64,000 bases of DNA. It comes from Clostridia bacterium (GTDB lineage: Bacteria > Bacillota > Clostridia > Oscillospirales > CAG-272). The position numbers were made by a program, and so were the translations under genes. Positions 29,178-43,431 of the stretch are shown here, in pieces. The number at the start of each line of letters is the position of its first letter. The first letter of the stretch is position 1. The stretch lies in NCBI GenBank assembly GCA_017463485.1, contig JAFTPD010000002.1:129229-193228 (forward strand). The letters are read 5' to 3'. The notes under the pieces were generated by a model that saw nothing but the letters and a program-made list of their open reading frames with translations, had not been told where the DNA came from and made no database searches.

Positions 29178-32100
29178 TTATTCAAACTTGTAATACTTGG
29201 AATACAAAATTCCTTCAGCATTACTTACGACAAGAATAGCGTCGAGTGCGATCTCATCCGCTGTTCTTACGTCGTCGAACATAGTCACTCCGTAGATCGT
29301 GCCCTTGAAGTACTGACCGCTCGTAGCTCGTTTGTCGTTTCCGACGTTGAAATCACTCGTTATCTCGGGAACGGCAACCGTAAGCTCAACGGTTTCTGCC
29401 AGCACACCGTTTACGTAAAGCTTTACGGTGAGTCCGTCAATGGTCAGTGCAACGTGGGTAAACGAGTTGGAACGAATGTCTGTACTGAATACGTGCGAAT
29501 ATCCGACTCCGTTAACCTTGTAGTACAGACGGGGATTTCCTTCGGTATAGATCTCAAAGTTGATAGCATCTCCGCTTCCACCGTCATACGAGCCAATAAT
29601 TACACCCGCGCGGTTTCTGTAATCGGGAGAAAGCTGTATCAATGCTTCAAATGTCATGGGAGAGGACGCGATAATATCAGTATTCAACGCATCACTCTCA
29701 GAGCCCAATGTAAGTCCTGCATTATCTGCAATGGAAACGTTATTAACATCAGTGTACGTGCAGGAAATTTCCTTTACAGAAATCAATTTACCGCATACAG
29801 TACATTCCTTGTGCTTGAGTCCGTTTGACGTTGCAGTAGCCTCACGGTCAATTATCCAATCACTCACTACGTGATCGTTGTCTGCGGTGTGAGGGTTGCA
29901 GTCTGTATAACCGTAGACTACGGAGTACATGAGATCGTCAGCTTCCGTGGGAGTCAGCAGGGAATCTGCCTTGATCTCTTCAGCGCTTCTAACGTCACCG
30001 AACAGCGCCAGCGAATAGATCTCACCCTTGAAGTACTGCGAGTTCTCATATCTGTTATCACCGCCGACCACGTAGTTCTTAGTGGTAACAGGCAGTTCAA
30101 GAGGAAGCTGTGCAGTTTCGACAGCCTCGCCGTCGACGTACAGCGTAGCCAACGTTCCGTCAACCGTGAGCGCGATATGGACGGGAGCATCAGAGCGGAT
30201 ATCGGTATTGAATATCGTATTTACTCTTACGCTGTTATTTACGAAGAATAGTCGCACACGTCCCATTTCATATATCTCAAAGGTAATCTGCTGAGAATCG
30301 TCGCCGTAATAGTTACCGAATATAACGCCTGCACGTCCGTCCATTGTGGTAGGAACGTGTAAGACGGCTTCCATGGTGTAGGGAGCTGTAGTGAGGTCAT
30401 CAATACGGTCGATATGTATTCCGTCAAAGGTGTGTCCCGTAGGGCGGTATTCGGGAGTGGTGGCAGATTTAATTTCGTCGGTGAGGTTGCACGAATAGAT
30501 GAGCGACTCGGCGTCAGCAGCCACCGAGGCAAAGTCGGACTTGATCTCATCTGCGGTTCTTGCGTCGCTGAACATATATACCGAGTAAAGCTCACCCTTG
30601 AAGTACTGAACGTTATCAACGCGATTATCGCCGCCGATCCTGAAATTTTCGGTAGCTTCGGGAAGGTCAATGAGCATAGCCTTTGTTTCCTTCAGATCAC
30701 CGTCAACGTACAGGTAAGCAGTTTGTCCGTCAACAGTTACCGCGATATGGCGTTTATCGTAAGAGCGGATATCTGTGCCCGAGAATAAGCATTCGCCCTT
30801 TGTGATGCCGTCGTTATAGAATAGTCTTGCACGTCCGTTATAGTAAACCTCAAGATTTATCTGAGCGCCCGTACCGTTGTCATAGTTACCCACAATTACA
30901 CCCGCTCTATCCCAATAGCTCGGCAAAATGCGGATAGTCGCTTCGATAGTATGGGGTGCGCTTGCAAGAGTGTCTACGGATACGGAGGAGTCTGCTGTAA
31001 ATCTCGTTCCTTCCTCCAAATTATCCGCAGCATTTTCTACCTTGGTGAAGTAGTTGAGGTAGAGGAGAGAATCAGAGGCATTATCCATCATAAGGCTGTC
31101 ACGCTTGATTTCGTTAGCGTTCTTTGCAACGCTGTAAAGTCCGACAGCGTAGATCTTGCCCTTGAAATACTGTGCGTTATTTGCGCGGTGATCGCCGCCG
31201 ACCATAAAGTTATCGGTTACAGAAGGGATAGCGTAGGGGAACTCGGCAGTATCCGCAATCTCGCCGTCTACGTAAAGAGTAGCGGTTTTTCCGCTCATCA
31301 CGACCGCAATATGGGTCGGTACACCCGTGCGAACGTCAGCATCAAAATATACCGTTGAGGCATATCCTGCCTTGTTAACGTAGAGTCTGGGAACACCGTT
31401 ATCGTATATTTCAAGGTTGATCTGATTCTGTGTACTTCCGTCGTAATTTCCGAATACGACACCACCGCGTCCCGTATGCGTTGTGGGAAGGCTGATTATT
31501 GCTTCGACGGTCAGAGGAGCAGAGGAGAGAGCTTCAAGTGAAATATTCGTGTTCTCATCAGGAGAGATACCGATATTTTCTATGGAATCGGAATTCGGAG
31601 CGGTTGCAAAGCTTCTCGAATAAAGGAGACCATCGGCGTCATTGGCGACAACAAACATATCCTTTGCGATCTCTGCCTCTGTTCTTACGTCACTGAACAG
31701 TGCAACCGAGTAAATCTCGCCCTTGAAGTACGGTGAATTGTACAGGCGGTTGTCGCGACCGATCATCAGTTCATCGGAAATAGCAGGTATGTTACCAGAC
31801 AGAAGCTGGGTATCCGCAAGAGCCCCGTCTATATAAAGTCTTGCGATTTTGCCGTCAACAGTAACCGCAATATGCACGGGAGTGTCGGAGCGGATGTCAG
31901 ACTCAAAGAAGCACTCGTCCTTTATACCGTTATTCTTGATGTAAAGTCTTACCTGACCGTAGTTGTAGATCTCAAGGTTTATCTGGTTAGCACCCATTCC
32001 GTCGTAGTTGCCTACTATAACGCCGCCACGATCAAGGTGCTGCTTGGAGAGCTGGATATACGCTTCAAAGGTCAAGGGCGTTTGAGAAATGCCCGTAGTC

Positions 32101-35100
32101 ATTTTTTCCTCACCTGTAAACCACATACCCTCCATTCCAACGTCGGTGTTTTCGTTTTCCTTCTCTCCAACGGAGACCTCCTTCATCTCGACTATACTGC
32201 CGCATACGGTACAATCCTTATGCTGAACACCGTTAGAGCCGAGCGTAGCCTCCTTATCGACTATCCATTCACCGGGACGGTGAATGGTTCCGGTGATGAT
32301 CTTTTCGTCGCAGTAGATACACGGAATGTAATAGTAACCGTGTTCATTGGTCTCGGGAATAAATGTCTGCTCGTCACCGTAAGTATGCTCAACGATTCCA
32401 ACAGTAGTAAGATCAGCCATATTGAAGAATACGCTGTCCTCCTCGCAATCGGTTTCCTTGATAACGAGCATAAAGTTGGACTGATAGCACATTGAGCCCG
32501 CATGCATATTGCAGGAGTTGAGCAGGGAAACGTAATATCTCTGTCCATCCTTGACATACGACATAAGGATGTCCTTGTTGTGTACGGAATCGTGCTTGAA
32601 TTCGTTGAGAGATATAAGTCCGATATCCTTGCCGACTGTCAAGCCGTTAAGCTTTGTACCGTCAAAGTTTTCCATCATACCGTAGAATTTGTTTTCTACG
32701 TTTTTGTTGTTGAAGAAGGAGCCGACAATAATGTCCTCCATCTGCTGTCCGAGCGGGAAGTTGGAGTTATACTCCGCCGCATTCCATATAAATATTATGG
32801 AGTCTTCGGAATCATACATTTCGCGGAGATACTTGCAGTAGGGGTTGTAAGCTTCATCCCATACGGTAGTACCGCCGGCAAATGGAGTAAAGTAAAGCTC
32901 AAATACGTCGTCGCTTTCCGTTCCGAGATAAACGAGTTGCTCATCAGCAGGAATCTCGTCATCCTTGCCCGCAAGAATAAGATCTATCTGTCTTGCGCCC
33001 TCGCGGCTCATAAAATCCTGGAACTCGTATATCTGCTCCTGTCCGCAGTACTCGGAGATAAGGCGCAGATAGTTAGCAGACACGCGATAGATATATTCGT
33101 GGTCGGAAACTATGGTCGCGGTCTGCAGCTTCCAGTTGGCGTTATAACCCTTGGAGGTAATACCGTCAAGGTTGGAGCTGGAGGTCCATACGGCATTTTT
33201 ATGCTCAACGCCGTTAATATCGAGGTAATGTGATACCGCGCAGAGCTTGGTGTGCATCATATCTGTTCCGCCCTTTTGTTCGAGAGTCCAATAGCAGAAG
33301 GAGAAGTTCATGTAGTCGCCCACAACACCCTCGGCATAATCAGCATCGCAGGGAGTGTCAAGGTGAGCGGTGAAATACTCGTAGAAATTGGGATCGCTTG
33401 AATTGATCGGGTACGCATCAAGCTGACCTATAACGGTGACATTGATACCCATCTTAGCCGCCGATACAAGCAGATAGGAAACACGGACAAATCCAAATTC
33501 GTCATATTCACATCCGACAAGCTGACGCATATAGCCGAAGTAGCGGCTGTTGCGGTTGATGTTAACCGCAGCTTCAATGGAGAATCTGTACGCGGATATT
33601 GCGATAGAAACCTCCTCTTCGGGGTGTGCCTGCTTGTAAAGCATAGCCTGATAGATAAGGATTCCTTCGCTGGCGGTTGCGATTCCGTCCTTGGCGTAAG
33701 CCGCATATACGAAGCTATCCACAGTTACCGTGCCGCCGTTGATATTTTCAAAATAAGTCACTCCGTCACTCAAGAAGTTGGAGCTCTTATCAAGAACGGG
33801 AAGATCTTCGTAGTATTTGCTTATGTATCCGTCGTTTGTGTTCTGAGCAAGATCAAATACGTCGTTGACGGATACGGGAGCCTTTTCGGGAGTAATATCA
33901 GCCTCTGGTATTTCGTGAACGTAATCGTCATAAGAGGGAATAGCCGAGCTGATCTCCGCTACGGTAAGCAGATTGTAGATTGCCGTAGCCCAGTAATCTG
34001 CATTAAGCTCGCCCGTGGCGTCGTTGTCAGTGTATTTGGACTTGTCAATATTCAGCTTTGCATTGACGGTGTTACCCCAGATGATAGGACCGCCCGTGGT
34101 TGCGGTATTGCCCGAAACAGTCAGTCCGACTAATTTGACGACAGTTCCCGACGTGGTTTCGTACATAAATCCGCCCTTGTCGGCACTGTTGTCAGTAGCG
34201 GTAATGTTATACATATCCACAAGAGACTTGTTGGAGATGTATAGAGCTCCGCCCGCTCCGTCAGCTACGTTTGAATCAAATGTGCAGGTGTGAAGCACCG
34301 ACTGTGAACCTGCAGTATAGATCATCAGCGAGCCACCGTTTTCAGCACAAGTGTTTTGACTGAAGGAGGTATTGTAGACGTTGATAATAGCGTCGGTATA
34401 TGCGTATACAGCACCGCCGTTCTTGGTAGAAGAGTTTGCCGAGATATCGCTGTTGTAAATATTGAGTGTAGCCTCGTCAACGTGGATAAATCCACCGTTG
34501 CCAGAGGCATTTCCAGCAGCAGTAACGTTATTCATGGTTACGGTTGCGGAGGAAGTGATCTTCAGCGCACCGCCTGCATTGTTGGCAGAGTTGGAGCTAA
34601 AGGTCGCGCCGTTTATCTCAACAGTGCTTCCCGCAAGATACCAAGCGCCGCCCTGACCGTCCTCGTCAACGGTTGCGGTGTTTTCGGTAAATTCCGAATT
34701 TTCAACGTAAACGCCGACCTTGGAAAGGGTAGAGAGCGCGCCGCCGTTTACTCCTGCGCTGTTTGACTTGAATACTGTGTCTGTAATGGTGAGAATATTC
34801 CATTCATCCTCAAGCGCACTGCGTCTTGTTGCGTAAATAGCGCCACCGTTGGAGGTTGCAGTATTGGAAGTCAAAACGGAATTTTTGATCTCAACCTTTG
34901 AGTTGATTTCGCGGTTGCTCTGATAGGATACGTATATCGCACCGCCGTTTGCAGCCGCGATGCTCTCTGTGATCTCAACGCCGTCGAGTGTGAGATAAGA
35001 GCTGCGGACGACGATTGCACCGCCGTGCTTTCCTGATGTATTGGACGACATTACAGAGTCGGTGACGGTTGCCATGCTTTCGCCTGCGATATAAATAGCA

Positions 35101-38100
35101 CCCGCTTCGGTAGCCGCCGAGTTTTCCGTGAATTCGCCGTTTTTAACGGTAAGCGAGACCTTTCTGTCAGCATATATTGCGCCGCCGCTTGCCGAGGAAG
35201 CGTTGCCTATCTCGAGAGAAGCCTTGTTGCCCGTAAATGTACAATCCGTGACCGTTGCGATAGCACCCTCGGGATAATCAGCCGACGAAGCGTACAGTGA
35301 GAGTGAGCCGCCGAGAGTTGCCTCGTTGGCGGTAAATGTGCATCTTGTCAGCTCGACATATCGGGTTATGGAATTCAGACTCGATTTGGAGGCATAGACA
35401 GCACCGCCGCGGTTGGTTGCGGTATTACCCTCAAAGGATGAATCGCGGACAGTAAGCTGACCGTACATGCAGATCGCACCGCCGCTGCCTTTAGTAGAGG
35501 AGTTGTTAGTAAATGAAGCGTGACCGTAGATCACATTTGCAGTAAGAGTGGAGGCGTAAATAACACCACCAGAGCTGCGAGCTACGTTGTCGCTGAATAC
35601 GACCTCACCGTGCGCTCCGTCAGTAGTTCCGACGTACAGATGGACCTGTGCGGAGTTGGGGGAGTAGTATACACCGCCCGAAACGGTGGCTTCGTTTCCG
35701 ATAAAGCTGCCGCCAAATATTCTTGTGATTCGGTAGCTGTAGATAACGCCGCCTCGCGCGCCGCGGTTTGCTTCAAATGTACCGCCGTATATGTTGAGGT
35801 TACTGTTGTTGAAGATAAGTCCGCCGACAGTGCTGTGACGTTCTTCCTCGCCAAGGGAAGTATCGCCCTCGTCGTTTATGGTATTGTTTACGTAATGACC
35901 TCCGTAAATGTTGAGCGTTCCGCTGGCAACAACGGCAAGAGTACCGCCTATGCGGTTTTCGATACTGAGGATATACTTTTCATCCAAGGTCCTCAGATTT
36001 CCAACCTTGCAGAAATTCTGCACGGTCACGTTTTCGTAAAGCTCGACCGTGGAGCTGTAACCGATAAACAGAACGCTTCCCACTACGTCAACGGTCATGT
36101 TCTCGGAATTACCGTCAAATACCAGAAGATCCTTTTGCGTGGAAAGGGGATTACCCAACGTAAGCTTTGCATTGTTGCCCATAAGCAACGCGCTCTTGCC
36201 GTCTGCATTCTCTCCGATAACGAATATATCGCCGCCGAAATCGGGAGCGCGGGTAAGCGTATGACCGATAGTAGTAAAGATAGTGGTGTCACCCGTGATG
36301 TAGAAGGTTCTGTCAAGCTCAAAGTCAGCAACCACGCGGATGTGCTTAGCACCGGAAAGGATAGCCGTTTCAAGCTCGTCGGCAGTTGCTACGTCAATAG
36401 CATCCGCCATGTGATCGTAAGCCTCATTACCGTAGTCGAGATATTTGGGAATATCCTCGGTAATTTCGCTATGGGTAAGCTTATTGTAAATAGCCGCCTT
36501 CCAGTAATCACTGTCATAATCGCCGCTTGCATCAAGATCGGTGTACTTGGATTTGTCGATTTGAAGCTTCGCGTTAGTGGTGTTACCCCAGATGATAGGA
36601 CCACCCGTAGTTGCAGTATTACCTGAAACCGTAAGTCCGACTAATTTGACGACCGTTCCGGATGTGGTTTCGTACATAAATCCGCCCTTGTCGGCGCTGT
36701 TGTCGGTTGCAGTGATGTTGTAGAGCTGAACTTGAGATTTGTTTGAGATATACAGCGCACCGCCGTAAGCACCAACGTTCTCGGCAAAGGTACAGCTGTG
36801 TATTACAGAGTTTGTACCGCCGTTGTAGATCATCAACGCACCGCCATTTGCAACAGAGGTATTGCCTATGAAATCAGTGCCGTAGGCATTGAATACAGCA
36901 TCATCCGCTGCATGTACTGCACCGCCGGAAGTATTTGCCGTATTGTCCGATATAACGCTGTTGTAGATGTCAAGCGTAGCCGCCTCAATATAAGCCACGC
37001 CCCCCGACTTCTTAGCTGAGTTGCCCGTAACAGTCACGTCGTTGAGCAAAGCAGTTGCCGAGGAAATAAGGTATATCACACCGCCTTCCGCGGATGTGGC
37101 AGAGTTGCCGGATATGGTCGCACCGTTGATTTCAATATGAGCGCCGTTCAGGTAGAACACACCGCCTGTAGTGGCTGTGTTGTTGGTGAAATCGGTATCC
37201 TCGAAATATGCCCTCGAATTACCGCTCATATAGATAGCGCCCGCTCTGGATGCAGAGGTGTTCTGATCGAAGGTCGTGTTGTAGACAACCATCTCGCGGG
37301 TTTCCTCTCGCTCGTTGTTGCCAGTTAGATAGATAGCCGCGCCGTGCTTGGAGGCAGTGGAGTTTCCAATAAATTCGGAATCGCTTATCGTCATGCGAGT
37401 TGCAGAGGCGTAGATAGCACCGCCGTGGCTGGTAGCAGCGGAGTTGCCCTCAAACGTTGCATTCTTGATAGACGCGAAGTTGCACAGATACAAAGCACCG
37501 CCGCCACTTGTTGCGGTGTTGTTTTTGAAGATTATCTCGCCGTTTTCTACTTCGTCACATTCGTAACCAACATACAGATATGCACCCGTGCTGGCGGGGG
37601 TATAGAGAACGCCGCCAAGCGTTGAGGATGAGTTTTCAGTAAAAGTACCGTTGTAAATACGGAGAGTACGGTAGTTGTAGAGAGAGCCGCCGCGTCCTGC
37701 GTGGTTATTCGTGAACGTACCGCCGTAAATATTCATAACGCCGTGGTTGTAGAAGGCGCCGCCCTGACTGGAAAGGCTTCCCTCATCCGTAGCAGCAGTA
37801 ATATCGTTAACAGTGTTGTTAGAATAAGCACCGCCCCAGACGTTCAGCTCGCCGCCGTTTTCAACTATTGCCACAGCACCGCCGATACGGGCGGGATATG
37901 AGAGACTGTAATCACCCGCCGTGGTGCGGTCATTACCAACCTTGTTGTTATTCGTTACGGTGAGCTTTGTCCCAAGGTTAGCTTTTGAATCGTCACAAAC
38001 GAACAGCACTGTGCCAACGACATCGACAGCCATTTCGGCACTGTTACCGTCGATCGTGAGAGCCGCATCCGAGCCGTCAAGCTTAGCAAGAGTCAGAACG

Positions 38101-40460
38101 GCGTCCTTTTTACTCTTGCCGTCAGCGTTTTCGCCAACCACGAAAATATCTCCGCCAAAATCAGGCGCTCTTTTGAGGGTGTGTGCTTCGTCGGCAAAGA
38201 TGGTTACGCTTGATGTGACGTAGAAGGTTCTGTCAAGCTCAAAGTCAGCAGTGATACGGATAAGTGTATATCCGACCTCCAAGGCGCGCTCGAGCTGAGC
38301 CGCTGTCTGTACATTGGTTATCGACTCTGCCACGGGCGGCTCAACGGTAGCACCCGAATAGTCAACGTAGGAGGGTATAGTACCCGTCTTATCGTAGACC
38401 GTCAGCAGGTTGTAAATAGCTGTCGACCAATACGTGTCGTCCCAGTCGCCCGCGTAGTCGTTATCAACGTATTTTATCTTGTCGATGTAAAGCTTTGCGT
38501 TGGTAGTATTACCCCAGATGATAGCACCGCCCTCGGTAGCAGTATTGCCCGATAGAACAAGTCCGACAAGGGTTACAACAGTTCCAGCAGTGGTTTCATA
38601 CATAAATCCGCCCTTCACCGCACTGTTGCCCGTAGCACGAATGTTATACAGATCGACCTGTGACTTGTTTGAGATGTAGATAGCTCCGCCGCTTCCCGTA
38701 GCAATGTTATTTTCAAATATGCAGGAGTGGATGAGGGAATCAAGCCCGCCGTTGTAGATCATGACAGCGCCGCCGGTCGAAGCAGTGTTTTTGCTGAATA
38801 CGGTTGCATAAGCGTTGAATACGCCGTCTGTATATGCGTATACAGCACCACCGTTTTTATCAGCAGAGTTGTTTTTGATCGTACTGTTATAAAGAGAGAG
38901 TGTTGCAGCCGTCTGGTATACGAATCCGCCCACAGATGCTGAGTTTCCGTCAGCCGTGACGTTGTTCATAACAGCGCTTGCGGAGGAATATAGTGAAACT
39001 CCGCCGCCGTTTGTAGTAGCAGTATTATTCGTAATATTCGCTCCGTTGATCTCAACGGAAGCGTTGGTCGCGTAGATAGCTCCTCCGTAAGTGGTAGAGC
39101 TGTTTTCGGAAAAATCTACGGATGCGAAATATCCGCGAGCCGTACCGCTCATATAGATCGCGCCGCCGCGCTTGGAAGAGTTGTTCGTAAACTCAGTGCC
39201 GTCTACGATAAGCTCCTTGATATCCTCATCCTCGTTATTTCCGGTGATGTAGATCGCACCACCGTAACCCGCAGTAGCCGTGTTGCCGTCAAAAGCAGAG
39301 CTTTCTATCGACAGCTCCATAGCACCCGCAGCAATAGCACCACCGTGACCTGCGGCGGTAGTGTTACCGATAAATTGAGTGTTTTTTACAGAAGCAACGT
39401 GCTGTGCATAGATAGCACCGCCGCTTGACTCGGAGGAGTTGTTTTCAAATACGACAGAGCTCTCAACCGTGTCGTTGTCCTCACCTATGTAAAGATAAGC
39501 GGAGGTGCTGTTGGGGACGTATATCGCGCCACCGAGGGTAGACGCGGTATTATTGATGATCTTTGCGTTATAGATGTTCATTGTGCGGTAGTTGTAAAGC
39601 GCACCGCCTCGTCCCGCGTGGTTACCGTCAAATGTACCGCCGAATATGTCAAGCGTACCGTAGTTATAGATAGCACCGCCCTGGCTGGAAACTGTACCCT
39701 CGTCGGTGGATGAATCGGTAATGTCGTTTACACTGTTATTGGTGTAAAGACCGCCGTAGATCTGCATAGCCGCCTTGTAAGAAACAATGGCAACAGCACC
39801 GCCGATACGCACGGGGTAGGAAAGCTTATACTCCTCGCGCGCAGTTTTTTCGTTGCCGATCTTAATGTGATTTTGAACTGTGAGGTTATAGTAAAGATCG
39901 GTTCTTGATCCTTGGCGCACAAAGAAAACCGTACCCACGACGTCAGCCGTCATATTTTCCGAATTTCCGTCTATGACTATCATAGATGCGGTAAAGTCGT
40001 CGGGCTTACCAACCGTAAATATTACAGGCTCGGCAGTCGCAGTGCCGTCGCTGTTTTCTCCGATAACAAAAATATCACTGCCAAAATCAGCCGCTCTTTG
40101 AAGCGTGTGCGCTTCATCCGCTACTATTACGGTGTCTGAGACAACGTAGAAGGTGCGGTCAAGCTCAAAGTCTGCCATTATGCGGATAGCTGATGATCCA
40201 GCCGCAAGAGCAGCCTCAAGCTCGTCGGCTGAAGCAACGTCAACAGCGTTACTGTAATCCACAGTGGCATCGCCGTCGTCGTCAGGCTCAACAACGTCGC
40301 CGCTGTCAACCTCGTTTTCGGGGGGGATCTCTTCGTTCTCGACTACGTTTGCGATTTCTTCAGCAAAAATAGCCATCGGAGCAAAATTAAGCAGCATAGC
40401 CATAAGTATCACTATGGATAGCACTCTTAATTGCAACGATCTTTTCGAGTTCGTTTTCAT
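29178..40460 (-). CDS. Giant secreted protein: Pmp-like beta-helix modules, PLD-like domain, five LamG-like modules
   Basis: 3760 residues with a signal peptide (residues 1-33, ending IFA) and an acidic linker. Residues about 74-2180 comprise three related modules of right-handed beta-helix repeats rich in GGAIY and FxxN motifs, as in chlamydial Pmp proteins; each module opens with an ELDRTFYV strand. Residues about 2187-2690 resemble the phospholipase D superfamily: two HxK motifs (HTK near 2404, HNK near 2627), each followed by a strand and SSN or NSCN. A CTVCG segment follows, then five copies of a concanavalin/LamG-like module (about 165 residues each, signature YFKGEIYSVALF). No LPXTG, SLH or C-terminal membrane segment is seen, so its attachment is unexplained. 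Likely surface adhesin or enzyme; substrate unknown. Confidence 0.85.
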   Translation of the reverse strand: MKTNSKRSLQLRVLSIVILMAMLLNFAPMAIFAEEIANVVENEEIPPENEVDSGDVVEPDDDGDATVDYSNAVDVASADELEAALAAGSSAIRIMADFELDRTFYVVSDTVIVADEAHTLQRAADFGSDIFVIGENSDGTATAEPVIFTVGKPDDFTASMIVIDGNSENMTADVVGTVFFVRQGSRTDLYYNLTVQNHIKIGNEKTAREEYKLSYPVRIGGAVAIVSYKAAMQIYGGLYTNNSVNDITDSSTDEGTVSSQGGAIYNYGTLDIFGGTFDGNHAGRGGALYNYRTMNIYNAKIINNTASTLGGAIYVPNSTSAYLYIGEDNDTVESSVVFENNSSESSGGAIYAQHVASVKNTQFIGNTTAAGHGGAIAAGAMELSIESSAFDGNTATAGYGGAIYITGNNEDEDIKELIVDGTEFTNNSSKRGGAIYMSGTARGYFASVDFSENSSTTYGGAIYATNASVEINGANITNNTATTNGGGVSLYSSASAVMNNVTADGNSASVGGFVYQTAATLSLYNSTIKNNSADKNGGAVYAYTDGVFNAYATVFSKNTASTGGAVMIYNGGLDSLIHSCIFENNIATGSGGAIYISNKSQVDLYNIRATGNSAVKGGFMYETTAGTVVTLVGLVLSGNTATEGGAIIWGNTTNAKLYIDKIKYVDNDYAGDWDDTYWSTAIYNLLTVYDKTGTIPSYVDYSGATVEPPVAESITNVQTAAQLERALEVGYTLIRITADFELDRTFYVTSSVTIFADEAHTLKRAPDFGGDIFVVGENADGKSKKDAVLTLAKLDGSDAALTIDGNSAEMAVDVVGTVLFVCDDSKANLGTKLTVTNNNKVGNDRTTAGDYSLSYPARIGGAVAIVENGGELNVWGGAYSNNTVNDITAATDEGSLSSQGGAFYNHGVMNIYGGTFTNNHAGRGGSLYNYRTLRIYNGTFTENSSSTLGGVLYTPASTGAYLYVGYECDEVENGEIIFKNNTATSGGGALYLCNFASIKNATFEGNSAATSHGGAIYASATRMTISDSEFIGNSTASKHGAAIYLTGNNEREETREMVVYNTTFDQNTSASRAGAIYMSGNSRAYFEDTDFTNNTATTGGVFYLNGAHIEINGATISGNSATSAEGGVIYLISSATALLNDVTVTGNSAKKSGGVAYIEAATLDIYNSVISDNTANTSGGAVHAADDAVFNAYGTDFIGNTSVANGGALMIYNGGTNSVIHSCTFAENVGAYGGALYISNKSQVQLYNITATDNSADKGGFMYETTSGTVVKLVGLTVSGNTATTGGPIIWGNTTNAKLQIDKSKYTDLDASGDYDSDYWKAAIYNKLTHSEITEDIPKYLDYGNEAYDHMADAIDVATADELETAILSGAKHIRVVADFELDRTFYITGDTTIFTTIGHTLTRAPDFGGDIFVIGENADGKSALLMGNNAKLTLGNPLSTQKDLLVFDGNSENMTVDVVGSVLFIGYSSTVELYENVTVQNFCKVGNLRTLDEKYILSIENRIGGTLAVVASGTLNIYGGHYVNNTINDEGDTSLGEEERHSTVGGLIFNNSNLNIYGGTFEANRGARGGVIYSYRITRIFGGSFIGNEATVSGGVYYSPNSAQVHLYVGTTDGAHGEVVFSDNVARSSGGVIYASTLTANVIYGHASFTNNSSTKGSGGAICMYGQLTVRDSSFEGNTATNRGGAVYASKSSLNSITRYVELTRCTFTANEATLGGSLSLYASSADYPEGAIATVTDCTFTGNKASLEIGNASSASGGAIYADRKVSLTVKNGEFTENSAATEAGAIYIAGESMATVTDSVMSSNTSGKHGGAIVVRSSYLTLDGVEITESIAAANGGAIYVSYQSNREINSKVEIKNSVLTSNTATSNGGAIYATRRSALEDEWNILTITDTVFKSNSAGVNGGALSTLSKVGVYVENSEFTENTATVDEDGQGGAWYLAGSTVEINGATFSSNSANNAGGALKITSSATVTMNNVTAAGNASGNGGFIHVDEATLNIYNSDISANSSTKNGGAVYAYTDAIINVYNTSFSQNTCAENGGSLMIYTAGSQSVLHTCTFDSNVADGAGGALYISNKSLVDMYNITATDNSADKGGFMYETTSGTVVKLVGLTVSGNTATTGGPIIWGNTVNAKLNIDKSKYTDNDATGELNADYWATAIYNLLTVAEISSAIPSYDDYVHEIPEADITPEKAPVSVNDVFDLAQNTNDGYISKYYEDLPVLDKSSNFLSDGVTYFENINGGTVTVDSFVYAAYAKDGIATASEGILIYQAMLYKQAHPEEEVSIAISAYRFSIEAAVNINRNSRYFGYMRQLVGCEYDEFGFVRVSYLLVSAAKMGINVTVIGQLDAYPINSSDPNFYEYFTAHLDTPCDADYAEGVVGDYMNFSFCYWTLEQKGGTDMMHTKLCAVSHYLDINGVEHKNAVWTSSSNLDGITSKGYNANWKLQTATIVSDHEYIYRVSANYLRLISEYCGQEQIYEFQDFMSREGARQIDLILAGKDDEIPADEQLVYLGTESDDVFELYFTPFAGGTTVWDEAYNPYCKYLREMYDSEDSIIFIWNAAEYNSNFPLGQQMEDIIVGSFFNNKNVENKFYGMMENFDGTKLNGLTVGKDIGLISLNEFKHDSVHNKDILMSYVKDGQRYYVSLLNSCNMHAGSMCYQSNFMLVIKETDCEEDSVFFNMADLTTVGIVEHTYGDEQTFIPETNEHGYYYIPCIYCDEKIITGTIHRPGEWIVDKEATLGSNGVQHKDCTVCGSIVEMKEVSVGEKENENTDVGMEGMWFTGEEKMTTGISQTPLTFEAYIQLSKQHLDRGGVIVGNYDGMGANQINLEIYNYGQVRLYIKNNGIKDECFFESDIRSDTPVHIAVTVDGKIARLYIDGALADTQLLSGNIPAISDELMIGRDNRLYNSPYFKGEIYSVALFSDVRTEAEIAKDMFVVANDADGLLYSRSFATAPNSDSIENIGISPDENTNISLEALSSAPLTVEAIISLPTTHTGRGGVVFGNYDGSTQNQINLEIYDNGVPRLYVNKAGYASTVYFDADVRTGVPTHIAVVMSGKTATLYVDGEIADTAEFPYAIPSVTDNFMVGGDHRANNAQYFKGKIYAVGLYSVAKNANEIKRDSLMMDNASDSLLYLNYFTKVENAADNLEEGTRFTADSSVSVDTLASAPHTIEATIRILPSYWDRAGVIVGNYDNGTGAQINLEVYYNGRARLFYNDGITKGECLFSGTDIRSYDKRHIAVTVDGQTAYLYVDGDLKETKAMLIDLPEATENFRIGGDNRVDNVQYFKGELYSVYMFSDARTADEIKSDFASVAADAESLIYSCNLTDEIKSATTPEYRPTGHTFDGIHIDRIDDLTTAPYTMEAVLHVPTTMDGRAGVIFGNYYGDDSQQITFEIYEMGRVRLFFVNNSVRVNTIFNTDIRSDAPVHIALTVDGTLATLYVDGEAVETAQLPLELPVTTKNYVVGGDNRYENSQYFKGEIYSLALFGDVRSAEEIKADSLLTPTEADDLMYSVVYGYTDCNPHTADNDHVVSDWIIDREATATSNGLKHKECTVCGKLISVKEISCTYTDVNNVSIADNAGLTLGSESDALNTDIIASSPMTFEALIQLSPDYRNRAGVIIGSYDGGSGDAINFEIYTEGNPRLYYKVNGVGYSHVFSTDIRSNSFTHVALTIDGLTVKLYVNGVLAETVELTVAVPEITSDFNVGNDKRATSGQYFKGTIYGVTMFDDVRTADEIALDAILVVSNAEGILYSKYYKFE
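29181..32130 (-). repeat. Five tandem LamG-like coding modules inside the giant gene
   Basis: About 550-bp modules at roughly 31600-32130, 31020-31540, 30480-30990, 29900-30430 and 29181-29690 encode the same domain, each with GRAGVIxGNYDG, DIRSxxPxHIAxTVDG and QYFKGEIYS. They are diverged at the DNA level, so the amplification is not recent. Confidence 0.8.
33925..40240 (-). repeat. Three large beta-helix coding modules inside the giant gene
   Basis: The modules lie at about 38340-40240, 36420-38310 and 33925-36400. A shared anchor encoding ELDRTFYV recurs at about 40146, 38221 and 36303, a period of roughly 1.92 kb. Stretches of the DNA are nearly identical between copies, for example around 38590, 36660 and 34150, where the SGTVV and YETT codons fall. 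The third copy has extra rungs. Confidence 0.8.
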
Positions 40461-40516
40461 TGTTTTTTCCTTTCCATACCGCGGTCGTGCGGCACTGTAA
40501 ATATAAGGTTAATTAC

Positions 40517-40544
40517 ATTATACCATATTATGAGGAAAAAGCAA
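40517..40544 (-). promoter_or_regulatory. Promoter of the giant surface-protein gene
   Basis: Minus strand TTGCTT (40539-40544), 16 bases, TATAAT (40517-40522); GGAAAGGAAA precedes the ATG. Confidence 0.6.
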
Positions 40545-40591
40545 GTTATTTTTTTGTAGATCTGCCGATTACTGAAAACTCCGCCATCCTG

Positions 40592-40620
40592 TTTACTTTT
40601 TTACAGTTCTGTGATATAAT
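40592..40620 (+). promoter_or_regulatory. Promoter entering the 125-bp repeats (NimA-like gene)
   Basis: TTTACT (40592-40597), 17 bases, extended -10 TGATATAAT ending at 40620. The -10 is the first part of repeat copy 1. It would produce a leader of about 365 bases before the gene at 40992. Confidence 0.6.
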
Positions 40621-40950
40621 ATACGCAGAAATCCTTGCTGACGCAAGTCTTTGGGCTCCGCCCTGCGCGCACTTCGTGCGCCTGCGTCATTGATGACTTT
40701 GCAAAAATGTCCGTGCAAGCACACATTTTTGCTTCATGATATAATATACGCAGAAATCCTTGCTGACGCAAGTCTTTGGGCTCCGCCCTGCGCGCACTTC
40801 GTGCGCCTGCGTCATTGATGGCTTTGCAAAAATGTCCGTGCAAGCACACATTTTTGCTTCATGATATAATATACGCAGAAATCCTTGCTGACGCAAGTCT
40901 TTGGGCTTCGCCCTATGCGCACTGTCGTGTGCCCGCGTTATCGAAGTAAA
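40612..40950 (+). repeat. 125-bp structured direct repeat, two full copies and one divergent partial copy
   Basis: Copies start at 40612, 40737 and 40862, an exact 125-base period. Copies 1 and 2 differ at one base. Each full copy has a promoter-like TGATATAAT, then a three-way junction: outer stem TGACGCA/TGCGTCA (40639-40645, 40683-40689 in copy 1) enclosing hairpins GGGC/GCCC and GCGCAC/GTGCGC, then a second hairpin with 10-bp arms GCAAAAATGT/ACATTTTTGC (40701-40732). Copy 3 lacks the second hairpin and carries substitutions that keep pairing through G-U. The array fills the 531-base gap between the giant gene and the NimA-like gene. No coding potential is evident. Confidence 0.85.
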
Positions 40951-40991
40951 TCCTTGTAGCAAATTTTATCTAAAAAATAGGAGTAGTGAAA

Positions 40992-41468
40992 ATGTTCAGA
41001 GAATTAACTCGCAAAAATAAGGAATTGTCTATGGAAGAATGTGTGCGTGTACTAAAAAGTGAAAAGCGCGGCGTTTTGTCGGTTCTTGGAGATAATGGTT
41101 ATCCGTACGGTATGCCAATGAATCATTGGTACGACGAGAATGACGGCAAGCTTTATTTTCATTGCGGCAGGGCGGGACACAGACTGGATTCCTTGAAAAA
41201 GCATAACAAGGTGTCATTTTGTACTTATGACAGGGGTTATTCACGTGAGGGAGAGTGGGCGCTGAATATAAAAAGCGTTATAGTATTCGGTACGGTGAAA
41301 ATAATTGATAACGCTGATAAAATAAAAGACATAACCACAAAGCTCAGTCATAAATTTACCTCTGATGAGGAATATATCCAATCCGAAATTGAAATGCACC
41401 TGAAAGGAACGCTTCTTTTGCAGCTTATCCCAGAGCATATCTGCGGTAAATCAGTGCAAGAGTCGTAA
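40992..41468 (+). CDS. Pyridoxamine 5'-phosphate oxidase-family flavoprotein (NimA-like)
   Basis: 158 residues. The ATG at 40992 has AGGAG eight bases upstream. The split-barrel flavin-binding pattern is visible: RGVLSVLGDNGYPYGMPMN near 28-46 and LYFHCGRAGHRLDSLKKHNKVSF near 56-80. Members include 5-nitroimidazole reductases (Nim) and small FMN-binding proteins; resistance cannot be claimed from family membership. The leader contains the structured repeats, which could control its expression. Terminator at 41489. Confidence 0.83.
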   Translation: MFRELTRKNKELSMEECVRVLKSEKRGVLSVLGDNGYPYGMPMNHWYDENDGKLYFHCGRAGHRLDSLKKHNKVSFCTYDRGYSREGEWALNIKSVIVFGTVKIIDNADKIKDITTKLSHKFTSDEEYIQSEIEMHLKGTLLLQLIPEHICGKSVQES

Positions 41469-41559: not shown

Positions 41560-41588
41560 TTGACATTTTCCATTTTATGTGATATAAT
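41560..41588 (+). promoter_or_regulatory. Consensus promoter of the solute-binding lipoprotein gene
   Basis: TTGACA (41560-41565), 17 bases, TATAAT (41583-41588), with TGTGA before the -10. Confidence 0.87.
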
Positions 41589-41673
41589 GTGGATGTAAAA
41601 GGGAGAATTTTGCCAAAAATTTGTTTACTTTTACCTAATTTACACCATCATGATAAAACGGAAGGAGGACCGA

Positions 41674-43431
41674 ATGAAAAGTAACGCAAGCATTAGAAAA
41701 CTGATGTGCCTTGTTCTGGCAGTAACTATGATTTTGCCCACGCTTGCCGCGTGCGATGGCTTGGACGGAATTTTGTCAACGTCCGACGGGGAAACCACAG
41801 CCGCGCAGGCGGAGAGCGAAAGCACGACGACAGAGGTAACGACGGTTTCTCCAACAGAAACCGAAGTCACCGTATCGGACACCGAAAAAGCTGATACTGC
41901 CGATTCGGATGAAACGGAGGCAGACACGGTCACAGAGCCATCAACGGAGGATAGCTCCGAGACAGCGACGACTACCGATCCTGATACGGAGTCCACAACG
42001 CCCGAGGTAGAAACACGCAAGCCACATAATACTAATTTTGAGGAAATAACTACTCCCGAGCCCGATCCTAATCCCACTATGCACGATCTTGCTGAGAATC
42101 TTGATTTCGGCAGACTTGAAATAACTATTCTTTCCGCGCACACTGACATGCAAGAGGATGAATTTTACCTTGGCGAAAATTATATTTCGGGGGCAAGGGT
42201 TATTTCGGATGCCGCTTACGAGCGTGACCTCGCGGTTGAAAAGCAGCTCAACGTCAATCTTGTAACTATCATCAAGGACAAGAATGAATACCTCAATTCA
42301 ACACACATGACGGATGTTCAGGGCGGTCTTGGCGAATTCCAAATAATTGCTGACAGGACCACGAACAAGGGCATTATGGTAATCGACGGTTTTTACCGTT
42401 CGCTGAATGATTTTGAGCAGATCAACCTCAATAAAGACTATTGGGCGCAGGGCTTTGGCGGTGCTGCAACCTTTGGCGAGGATAGAGATCAGTATCTTGC
42501 AACGGGTGCGTTTGCCGTTTCCGTATACCGAATGATGTACGCTACCTTCTACAATAAGGAGCATTTGAGTACATTCGGTATTGAAGATCCTTACACTCTC
42601 GTAAAAAGCGGCGAATGGACGCTTGACGCGCAGACTGCCATGATCAACGAGGCGTTTTCGGAGTCAAACAGCGAGGCTGTTTCAGAGCTTGGCGACTATT
42701 ACGGCTTTGTCACAGGCGAAAATATCAGCATGGATCCGTACCTTGTGTCATCTGACGTAAGACTTATCAAAAGAAGTGTAGTTAATTATGAGTGGGCGTA
42801 CGATAATTATGAACTTAACTATTTGACGAAGGTGGTCAAAAAAGTTCAGTCGCTTACGACTAACGATCACACCTACGTTTTTGATTCTACAAAGGACCTT
42901 CCTATGTCCCTTGACGTATTTCTGAAATTTGCTAACGGTGACGCTATGTTGGCTACGTCCATGCTCTATTCTTACGAGCGGTGCCGAGGCGAAATCGGAT
43001 TCGATATGGGAATCGTGCCTATTCCCAAATACTCAACCCTGCAGGAGCAGTATTACACTTACGTATCCGATATGGCTACAAGTGTTGGTATCAGCTCTGT
43101 CGTGTGTAGAGACGAGGAGAAAATAGGCGCGACGCTTGAAGCACTTGCTTACCACGGCTATAAGAATGTCGGAGATGTTTACCGTGAATTGTTGCTTCTC
43201 GATTGCGGAGAAAACGCCGTAGAGATGCTTGACTTAATGTACGACACCGCTGCCACCGATTTTACGGGTATAATGTCTTCAGCTATTGAAAGCTTTAAAA
43301 TGCGTGATCATTTCCGTCTTATTTTCAGAGGCACCTCGCAGGAAACTGTTGTAAGCCTTTTCGGCAAGAATCAGACGGCACTCAGGAGAAGCTTGAAAAC
43401 TATCAATATTAAAACATCAAAGTTGCCGTAA
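41674..43431 (+). CDS. Extracellular solute-binding lipoprotein (sugar ABC transporter type)
   Basis: 585 residues. The ATG at 41674 follows GGAAGGAGG. A lipoprotein signal peptide ends in TLAAC (Cys near residue 27). A Thr/Glu/Ser-rich linker of about 90 residues follows, then a domain resembling family 1 solute-binding proteins, including MGIVPIPKYSTLQEQYYTYVS and LEALAYHGYKNV near the C-terminus. It would capture a carbohydrate at the cell surface. No permease or ATPase gene is adjacent, so it is an orphan that must share a transporter or act as a sensor. Terminator at 43452. Confidence 0.82.
   Translation: MKSNASIRKLMCLVLAVTMILPTLAACDGLDGILSTSDGETTAAQAESESTTTEVTTVSPTETEVTVSDTEKADTADSDETEADTVTEPSTEDSSETATTTDPDTESTTPEVETRKPHNTNFEEITTPEPDPNPTMHDLAENLDFGRLEITILSAHTDMQEDEFYLGENYISGARVISDAAYERDLAVEKQLNVNLVTIIKDKNEYLNSTHMTDVQGGLGEFQIIADRTTNKGIMVIDGFYRSLNDFEQINLNKDYWAQGFGGAATFGEDRDQYLATGAFAVSVYRMMYATFYNKEHLSTFGIEDPYTLVKSGEWTLDAQTAMINEAFSESNSEAVSELGDYYGFVTGENISMDPYLVSSDVRLIKRSVVNYEWAYDNYELNYLTKVVKKVQSLTTNDHTYVFDSTKDLPMSLDVFLKFANGDAMLATSMLYSYERCRGEIGFDMGIVPIPKYSTLQEQYYTYVSDMATSVGISSVVCRDEEKIGATLEALAYHGYKNVGDVYRELLLLDCGENAVEMLDLMYDTAATDFTGIMSSAIESFKMRDHFRLIFRGTSQETVVSLFGKNQTALRRSLKTINIKTSKLP

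What the first reader, a model, noticed from the sequence alone, without database searches (positions are those of the whole stretch)
40612..40950. 125-bp structured repeat, tandemly amplified in the leader of a NimA-like gene
Three copies with an exact 125-base period; copies 1 and 2 differ at one base, so amplification is recent. Each full unit holds a TGATATAAT extended -10, a predicted three-way junction and a second hairpin with T-rich 3' arm. The divergent third copy keeps pairing through G-U changes (GCGCAC/GTGTGC and TGACGC/GCGTTA), suggesting selection on RNA or cruciform structure. The array sits in what would be a 365-base leader of a flavoprotein gene, so copy number could tune expression or act as tandem small RNAs or promoters.
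Basis: partly seen in the sequence, partly recalled or inferred. Interest (0 to 1): 0.72.

Follow-up and report, generated by a model that had tools for sequence, protein, structure and literature searches.

The report
Promoter-invading miniature mobile DNA element
The 125-base repeat is a local cluster of a small mobile DNA element, found in an order of mostly uncultured gut bacteria, that sits exactly inside gene start signals (promoters) and leaves the interrupted promoter with a matching signal at both ends.

Summary
The array is real: 40612-40938, period 125; copies 1 and 2 differ at one base (40696) and copy 3 is truncated. It is not peculiar to this gene. The unit recurs in the same genome, in 45 of 295 sampled genomes of its family and in 35 of 394 of its order, across 9 families. 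Rfam, plasmids, phages and viral contigs gave no match. Copies sit inside sigma-A promoters: unrelated upstream flanks carry a -35 at 16-18 nt before the unit's TATAAT in 62 of 95 first copies, peaking at 17 (shuffles 14%). At two sites, relatives without the unit show it entered at the -10 box. Helices covary strongly (36 of 38 pairs change on both sides), but G-U and A-C cells are equally common (109, 102), unlike in tRNAs (29, 0), so structure is probably kept as DNA rather than RNA. Best reading: a non-autonomous structured element that enters extended -10 promoter cores in register and grows in tandem. Its enzyme is unknown; Y1 transposases show no association. I found no description of it in the searches made.

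The parts
40592..40597 (+). Host promoter -35 (TTTACT), 17 nt before the first TATAAT
   Evidence: Sequence; scored (2 mismatches to TTGACA, spacer 17)
40612..40614 (+). TGA of the host extended -10 (TGN), directly before copy 1
   Evidence: Sequence; left TGN varies between loci
40615..40739 (+).
   Evidence: register inferred
40740..40864 (+). Element copy 2, one base different from copy 1
40748..40812 (+). Multi-hairpin 5' domain of copy 2: closing stem 40748-40753 with 40807-40812, three hairpins inside
   Evidence: Fold; helices kept by two-sided changes across the family
40826..40857 (+). Second hairpin of copy 2 (GCAAAAATGTCCGTGCAAGCACACATTTTTGC)
   Evidence: Fold; helix 5; pattern search
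40701..40732 (+). Second hairpin of copy 1 (same sequence as in copy 2)
   Evidence: Sequence, 125 bases before that of copy 2
40865..40944 (+). Copy 3: truncated, older-looking 5' domain without the second hairpin, next to the gene
   Evidence: BLAST match ends at 40944; alignment
40992..41468 (+). Downstream gene: pyridoxamine-oxidase-fold (Nim-like) flavoprotein, ATG start

Best explanation
The unit is a non-autonomous miniature mobile element of about 125 bp with no coding sequence of its own that was recognised. It consists of a TATAAT, a multi-hairpin domain, a conserved linker (usually ATTGACGGC) and a second hairpin followed by TCATGR. It is found in one orientation inside sigma-A promoters with an extended -10 (TRTGN-TATAAT). 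The host -35 and TGN lie upstream in register with the first TATAAT, and a second hexamer, probably the host's own old -10, lies behind the element's TGR. A promoter core is therefore kept and doubled. Shown: dispersal, promoter register, two sites empty in relatives, kept structure, tandem copies. Inferred: that the donor is a circle or excised strand whose joined ends (TCATGR-TATAAT) match the target core; that an enzyme supplied in trans recognises the folded DNA; that arrays grow by re-entry at the same core or by unequal exchange or slippage between the repeated cores. In this window an old copy beside the flavoprotein gene has lost its second half, newer copies lie upstream of it at the -10, and one of them is a very recent duplicate.
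For: Same genome: three further places at 93, 79 and 69%. Model matches in 45 of 295 family genomes, 24 of 71 genera, and in 35 of 394 order genomes, 9 families. -35 within 2 mismatches at 16-18 nt in 62 of 95 first copies, 45 of them at 17; shuffles 14%. Left logo TRTGN-TATAAT. Empty sites: G003 for the copy at C10:93010 and 9 of 11 genomes at the pgk promoter. 36 of 38 pairs with two-sided changes, none of 500 shuffles as high. Same-strand gene start within 400 nt downstream in 55 of 83 loci, 28% at random positions. A second copy begins directly behind the first in 27 of 109 copies, shuffles 6.0, maximum 12. All 75 right-end pattern hits in 45 genomes belong to copies or remnants: 73 coincide with model matches, one lies beside a match and one is a decayed copy at another promoter.
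Against: No transposition was observed and no enzyme or autonomous version was found. Other TG.TATAAT sites have a -35 nearly as often (23 of 42), so preference for promoters beyond the extended -10 motif is not shown. 33 of 95 first copies lack a -35 within 2 mismatches. Only two sites have empty counterparts, and one pgk relative (G167) has TATAAT itself. Left and right N of TGN agree in 36 of 46 copies, 26.6 expected, which an element-borne right TGN does not predict by itself. Model and alignments started from six copies and lean to their structure.
Confidence: 0.78

Rival explanations
1. A structured regulatory RNA or small RNA gene with its own promoter, spread or duplicated, that works as RNA (leader or tandem small RNAs).
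For: Predicted starts fall in the closing stem about 7 nt after TATAAT. Strong covariation. The element would be transcribed from the host promoter (inference).
Against: G-U and A-C cells are equal (109, 102 of 4561), against 29 and 0 in 16 tRNAs (that finder requires pairing). The reverse strand of copy 2 folds better. No Rfam family. Stems and the second domain differ widely in sequence. Upstream promoter sequence is not shared between copies.
Confidence: 0.1
2. A Y1 (IS200/IS605 or RAYT) dependent element: hairpin ends, insertion next to a short target, moved as single-stranded DNA.
For: Hairpins near both ends, repeated core at both ends, one orientation. A kind of element known for subterminal structures (PMC6006769, seen in the listing only).
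Against: PF01797 in 10 of 45 carriers and 67 of 250 non-carriers. None in the window's genome. The IS200 copies of G003 have unrelated ends.
Confidence: 0.2
3. Insertion with a plain target-site duplication of about 9 bp (TGNTATAAT) by a DDE-type transposase acting in trans.
For: Direct repeats of the core at both ends; left and right N agree more than by chance (36 of 46, 26.6 expected).
Against: Right TGR context is largely fixed within a genome while the left varies. Left and right differ in the C10:93010 copy (TGC, TGA) and at pgk (TATAAT, TATACT). No inverted repeat of 12 nt or more joins the ends.
Confidence: 0.12
4. Only a local tandem duplication of a promoter region, without mobility.
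For: Copies 1 and 2 differ at 1 of 125 bases.
Against: Dispersed copies with unrelated flanks in many genera and two empty-site comparisons.
Confidence: 0.03

Closest known systems
Correia repeat enclosed elements and other promoter-bearing MITEs
   Same: Small non-coding elements, mostly upstream of genes, bringing sigma-70-like promoter sequence to neighbours (review PMC10969869, passages read).
   Different: No inverted repeat of 12 nt or more joins the ends here; the element sits within the promoter core, in register with a host -35. Correia ends and target are recalled, not tested.
REP, BIME and REPIN elements, and PATE-type derivatives of IS200/IS605
   Same: Palindromic hairpin DNA, clustered copies, presumed to be moved in trans (PMC3733652, abstract and passages read; PATE is recalled).
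   Different: Far fewer copies (at most 11 matches per sampled family genome), one fixed orientation in promoters, no Y1 association. The linker GACGG reads CCGTC on the other strand, which recalls the CGTC tag of one REP group, but the layout differs.
IS110-type elements with circle-junction promoters (bridge RNA)
   Same: Circle junction that recreates a promoter, structured non-coding end, recombination at a short core (PMC11208160, passages read).
   Different: No recombinase gene in the 125-bp unit; the pairing pattern does not favour an RNA. IS110 recombinases were not searched for.
Integron cassette arrays (attC)
   Same: Folded sites and arrays next to a promoter (recalled).
   Different: Ends are direct repeats of TGN-TATAAT, no cassette gene, many dispersed sites. 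Not tested further.

Membership tests
MITE (miniature inverted-repeat transposable element) | Terminal inverted repeats | tested here: not met
   No inverted pair of 12 nt or more joins the unit's ends (region 40300-41300); shorter ones not excluded
MITE (miniature inverted-repeat transposable element) | Target-site duplication | tested here: inconclusive
   Core repeated at both ends, but often not identical
IS200/IS605-type non-autonomous element | Subterminal hairpins | tested here: met
   Kept helices in both domains
IS200/IS605-type non-autonomous element | Y1 transposase present, with shared ends | tested here: not met
   10 of 45 carriers against 67 of 250 non-carriers; ends unrelated in G003
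REP / REPIN | 20-40 bp palindromes at high copy number with a GTAG or CGTC tag | tested here: not met
   About 125-bp unit, at most 11 model matches per sampled family genome; definition from PMC3733652
IS110 element with bridge RNA | Recombinase (PF01548, PF02371) in the element or in trans | not tested
   No whole-genome search left (12 of 12 used); the unit itself is too short to hold such a gene
IS110 element with bridge RNA | Functional structured RNA | tested here: inconclusive
   G-U equals A-C, which speaks against it; no RNA data
Rfam families (release 15) | Score at or above a family's gathering score | tested here: not met
   Window and 12 loci: no family on the element
NimABCDEF (downstream gene only) | NCBIfam curated cut-off | tested here: not met
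   116.7 bits against 260; PF12900 is met

The most novel reading that the evidence does not exclude
A family of mobile DNA elements uses the bacterial promoter core itself as attachment site. The joined ends of the excised element are an extended -10 core (TCATGR-TATAAT) that recombines in register with host extended -10 cores, perhaps in the DNA melted by RNA polymerase. Each entry keeps the host -35 at work and adds a second -10, repeated entry builds arrays, and the folded DNA is read by a recombinase not yet linked to such elements.
Probability: 0.3. Interest if true: 0.82.

Novelty: new variant of a known kind. Interest (0 to 1): 0.64.

Why it matters
If this reading holds, the element has found a cheap way into a genome: it enters the promoter core in register, so a -35 and a -10 remain, and it changes the leaders of unrelated genes, pgk among them. 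It would be a natural case of in-register promoter rewriting across an order of gut bacteria, and it points to an enzyme still to be found. It is also a caution for RNA discovery: strong covariation alone does not prove a functional RNA, since the mismatch spectrum here points to DNA.

Tried and rejected
Rfam on the window, on the array at a permissive threshold (one chance-level hit, not on the unit) and on 12 loci: nothing on the element. Y1 transposase as partner: no association. A longer autonomous version: not seen; 75 right-end hits in 45 genomes were all copies or remnants. Viral contigs, plasmids, phages: none. Empty site for the window's own locus: the G003 orthologue has another gene upstream. 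AraC-gene site of G003: no match at E <= 1e-20 in the 7 other genomes searched. Left TAAT pairing with the linker ATTG as an extension of the closing stem: an unbroken helix of 5 or more in 3 of 83 copies, so not claimed. Papers on promoter- or TATAAT-targeting elements: nothing matching in the listings.

One search compared observed second copies, with shifts of one base allowed, to shuffles without shifts; repeated with the same rule the shuffle mean is 6.0, maximum 12.

Rows dropped: of 142 model matches low-scoring ones and 2 from a duplicate locus (L103) were left out, leaving 121, plus the window's first copy. One search then dropped 10 behind another copy, 6 with under 45 nt upstream, 6 not starting TATAAT-like and 5 with similar upstream sequence, leaving 95. 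One search found no right end in 10 and used 93. (pair counts) used the full alignments, low-scoring matches included.

Full report
What was claimed and what is there. That is correct: one array at 40612-40938, period 125; copies 1 and 2 differ only at 40696; copy 3 is 95% like them over 62 nt and then diverges. Copy 3 lacks the second hairpin and does not fold better than shuffles. The downstream gene (ATG 40992) encodes a pyridoxamine-oxidase-fold flavoprotein, related to Nim but below that model's cut-off.

It is dispersed. In the same genome the unit recurs at C10:93010-93133 (93%), C6:90511-90634 (79%) and C6:72631-72733 (69%). In the genus a nucleotide search finds it in 2 of 12 genomes and the model in 3 of 12 at E <= 1, one of them weakly. 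The covariance model, built from six copies, matches at E <= 0.001 in 45 of 295 genomes of the family, 24 of 71 genera, up to 11 matches per genome, and at E <= 0.0001 in 35 of 394 genomes of the order, 26 of 168 genera, 9 families. An exact 45-nt pattern scan of one genome for each of 84,980 species returned 53 stretches, titled Clostridia, Clostridiales, Eubacteriales, Oscillospiraceae or Ruminococcus, many from animal gut. Viral contigs (same pattern), plasmids and phages (blastn, E <= 1e-5) gave nothing.

It sits inside promoters. Upstream flanks of different copies are unrelated, yet a -35 within two mismatches of TTGACA lies 16-18 nt before the unit's TATAAT in 62 of 95 first copies. By distance the count is 45 at 17 and 0 to 10 at every other distance from 8 to 30. 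Shuffled flanks give 14%, other TATAAT sites in the same loci 24% (70 of 292), other TG.TATAAT sites 55% (23 of 42). So the target is the extended -10 core TRTGN-TATAAT (logo), and such sites are mostly promoters; a preference beyond the motif is not shown. In the window itself there are 8 TRTGN-TATAAT sites, 6 of them with a -35 within two mismatches at 16-18 nt, and only the array is an occupied one. A same-strand gene start lies within 400 nt downstream in 55 of 83 loci (28% at random positions); a divergent one on the upstream side in 28 of 83, near background (12 loci with short flanks skipped).

It was inserted. For the copy at C10:93010 the related genome G003 has the same flanks (90% and 86% identity) without the unit: TTGACA, 16 nt, TATAAT, then the sequence that follows the right end in the filled genome, one base apart at the first position. 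At the pgk promoter of another genus, 2 of 11 genomes carry the unit and 9 do not. The empty promoters have hexamers TATAGT (3), TATACT (2), TATATT (2), TACAAT (1) and TATAAT (1); the filled ones have TATAAT on the left and TATACT on the right.

Where the join lies. The right-hand context (TCATGG, TCGTGG, TCATGA and so on) is largely the same within a genome, for instance TCGTGG at all seven readable right ends of G260, with exceptions elsewhere, while the left TGN varies from site to site. So the left TGN is host and the right TGR element. The right hexamer departs from TATAAT beside an intact TCRTGR-like context in 23 copies, against 7 the other way (p 0.005; 93 copies); the left hexamer is exact in 85 of 95. 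With pgk this favours an element that starts with TATAAT, ends with TCATGR and pushes the host's old hexamer to its right. Against it, left and right N agree more than by chance (36 of 46, 26.6 expected), and selection on the left promoter with decay of the right one would look similar. I hold this detail at about 65%.

Structure. Both domains keep their helices by two-sided changes: 36 of 38 pairs, 94.9% of cells paired; shuffles give 22.4 pairs and 78%, slid partners 29-50% of cells (the alignment was fitted to the model). Some genomes keep the plan with quite different stems, and the second domain comes in at least three sequence types between the linker and TGG. Yet G-U and A-C cells are equally common, 109 and 102 of 4561, against 29 and 0 of 346 pairs in 16 tRNAs from the same loci (that finder itself requires pairing). 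An RNA under selection should show more G-U than A-C. Equality points to structure kept in double-stranded DNA, by recognition of a cruciform or hairpin or by arm-to-arm correction. The better fold of the reverse strand of copy 2 fits this.

Tandem growth. A second copy starts directly behind the first in 27 of 109 copies at 26 loci; shuffled partners give 6.0, maximum 12. It is often cut short: outside the window the second copy tracks the first for 11 to 131 nt. The window is a typical case: full copies at the -10, a truncated one beside the gene. Two contigs of G003 end inside copies, so arrays in drafts may be longer than they look.

Enzyme. No Y1 transposase was found in the window's genome (91% complete). 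Across the family 10 of 45 carriers and 67 of 250 non-carriers have one. The IS200 ends of G003 are unrelated. All 75 right-end hits in the 45 carriers belong to copies or remnants, so no autonomous version was seen. My preferred guess is a recombinase acting in trans on a circle, because the joined ends form an extended -10 core equal to the target. This was not tested.

Function. By anatomy each entry keeps a -35 and a TATAAT in register, moves the expected start into the element and places a second extended -10 before the gene. Effects on expression are inferred. In L110 a copy (127-272) precedes a cobalamin riboswitch (552-758).

Verdict. Observation confirmed, interpretation partly supported: an apparently undescribed family of promoter-invading miniature elements. 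That it is not in print rests on paper searches in an open-licence library that lacks most subscription journals, and on Rfam.

Noticed in passing
window 29178-40460 (-): A 3760-aa secreted-looking protein just upstream of the array, with Chlamydia-PMP-type repeats and five Laminin_G_3 stretches by Pfam.
   Followed up: partly
window 41560-41588 (+): A textbook promoter (TTGACA, 17 nt, TATGTGATATAAT) without an element, 700 bp from the array and before the 593-aa ORF 41650-43431: an empty target core.
   Followed up: partly
L110 127-758: A copy of the element lies upstream of a cobalamin riboswitch (Rfam RF00174, 39.9 bits).
   Followed up: no
L081, L110, L120, L144: Second-domain variants with other stems (GGCTAAAAG..CTTTTATGG and GGCTGATTT..AAATCATGG) between the same linker and TGG-TATAAT end; the model probably misses copies of these types.
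   Followed up: partly
L056 and L068: In two genera copies lie before the gene for what looks like peptide chain release factor 2 (sequences; name recalled, no family search made); whether these entries are independent was not checked.
   Followed up: no
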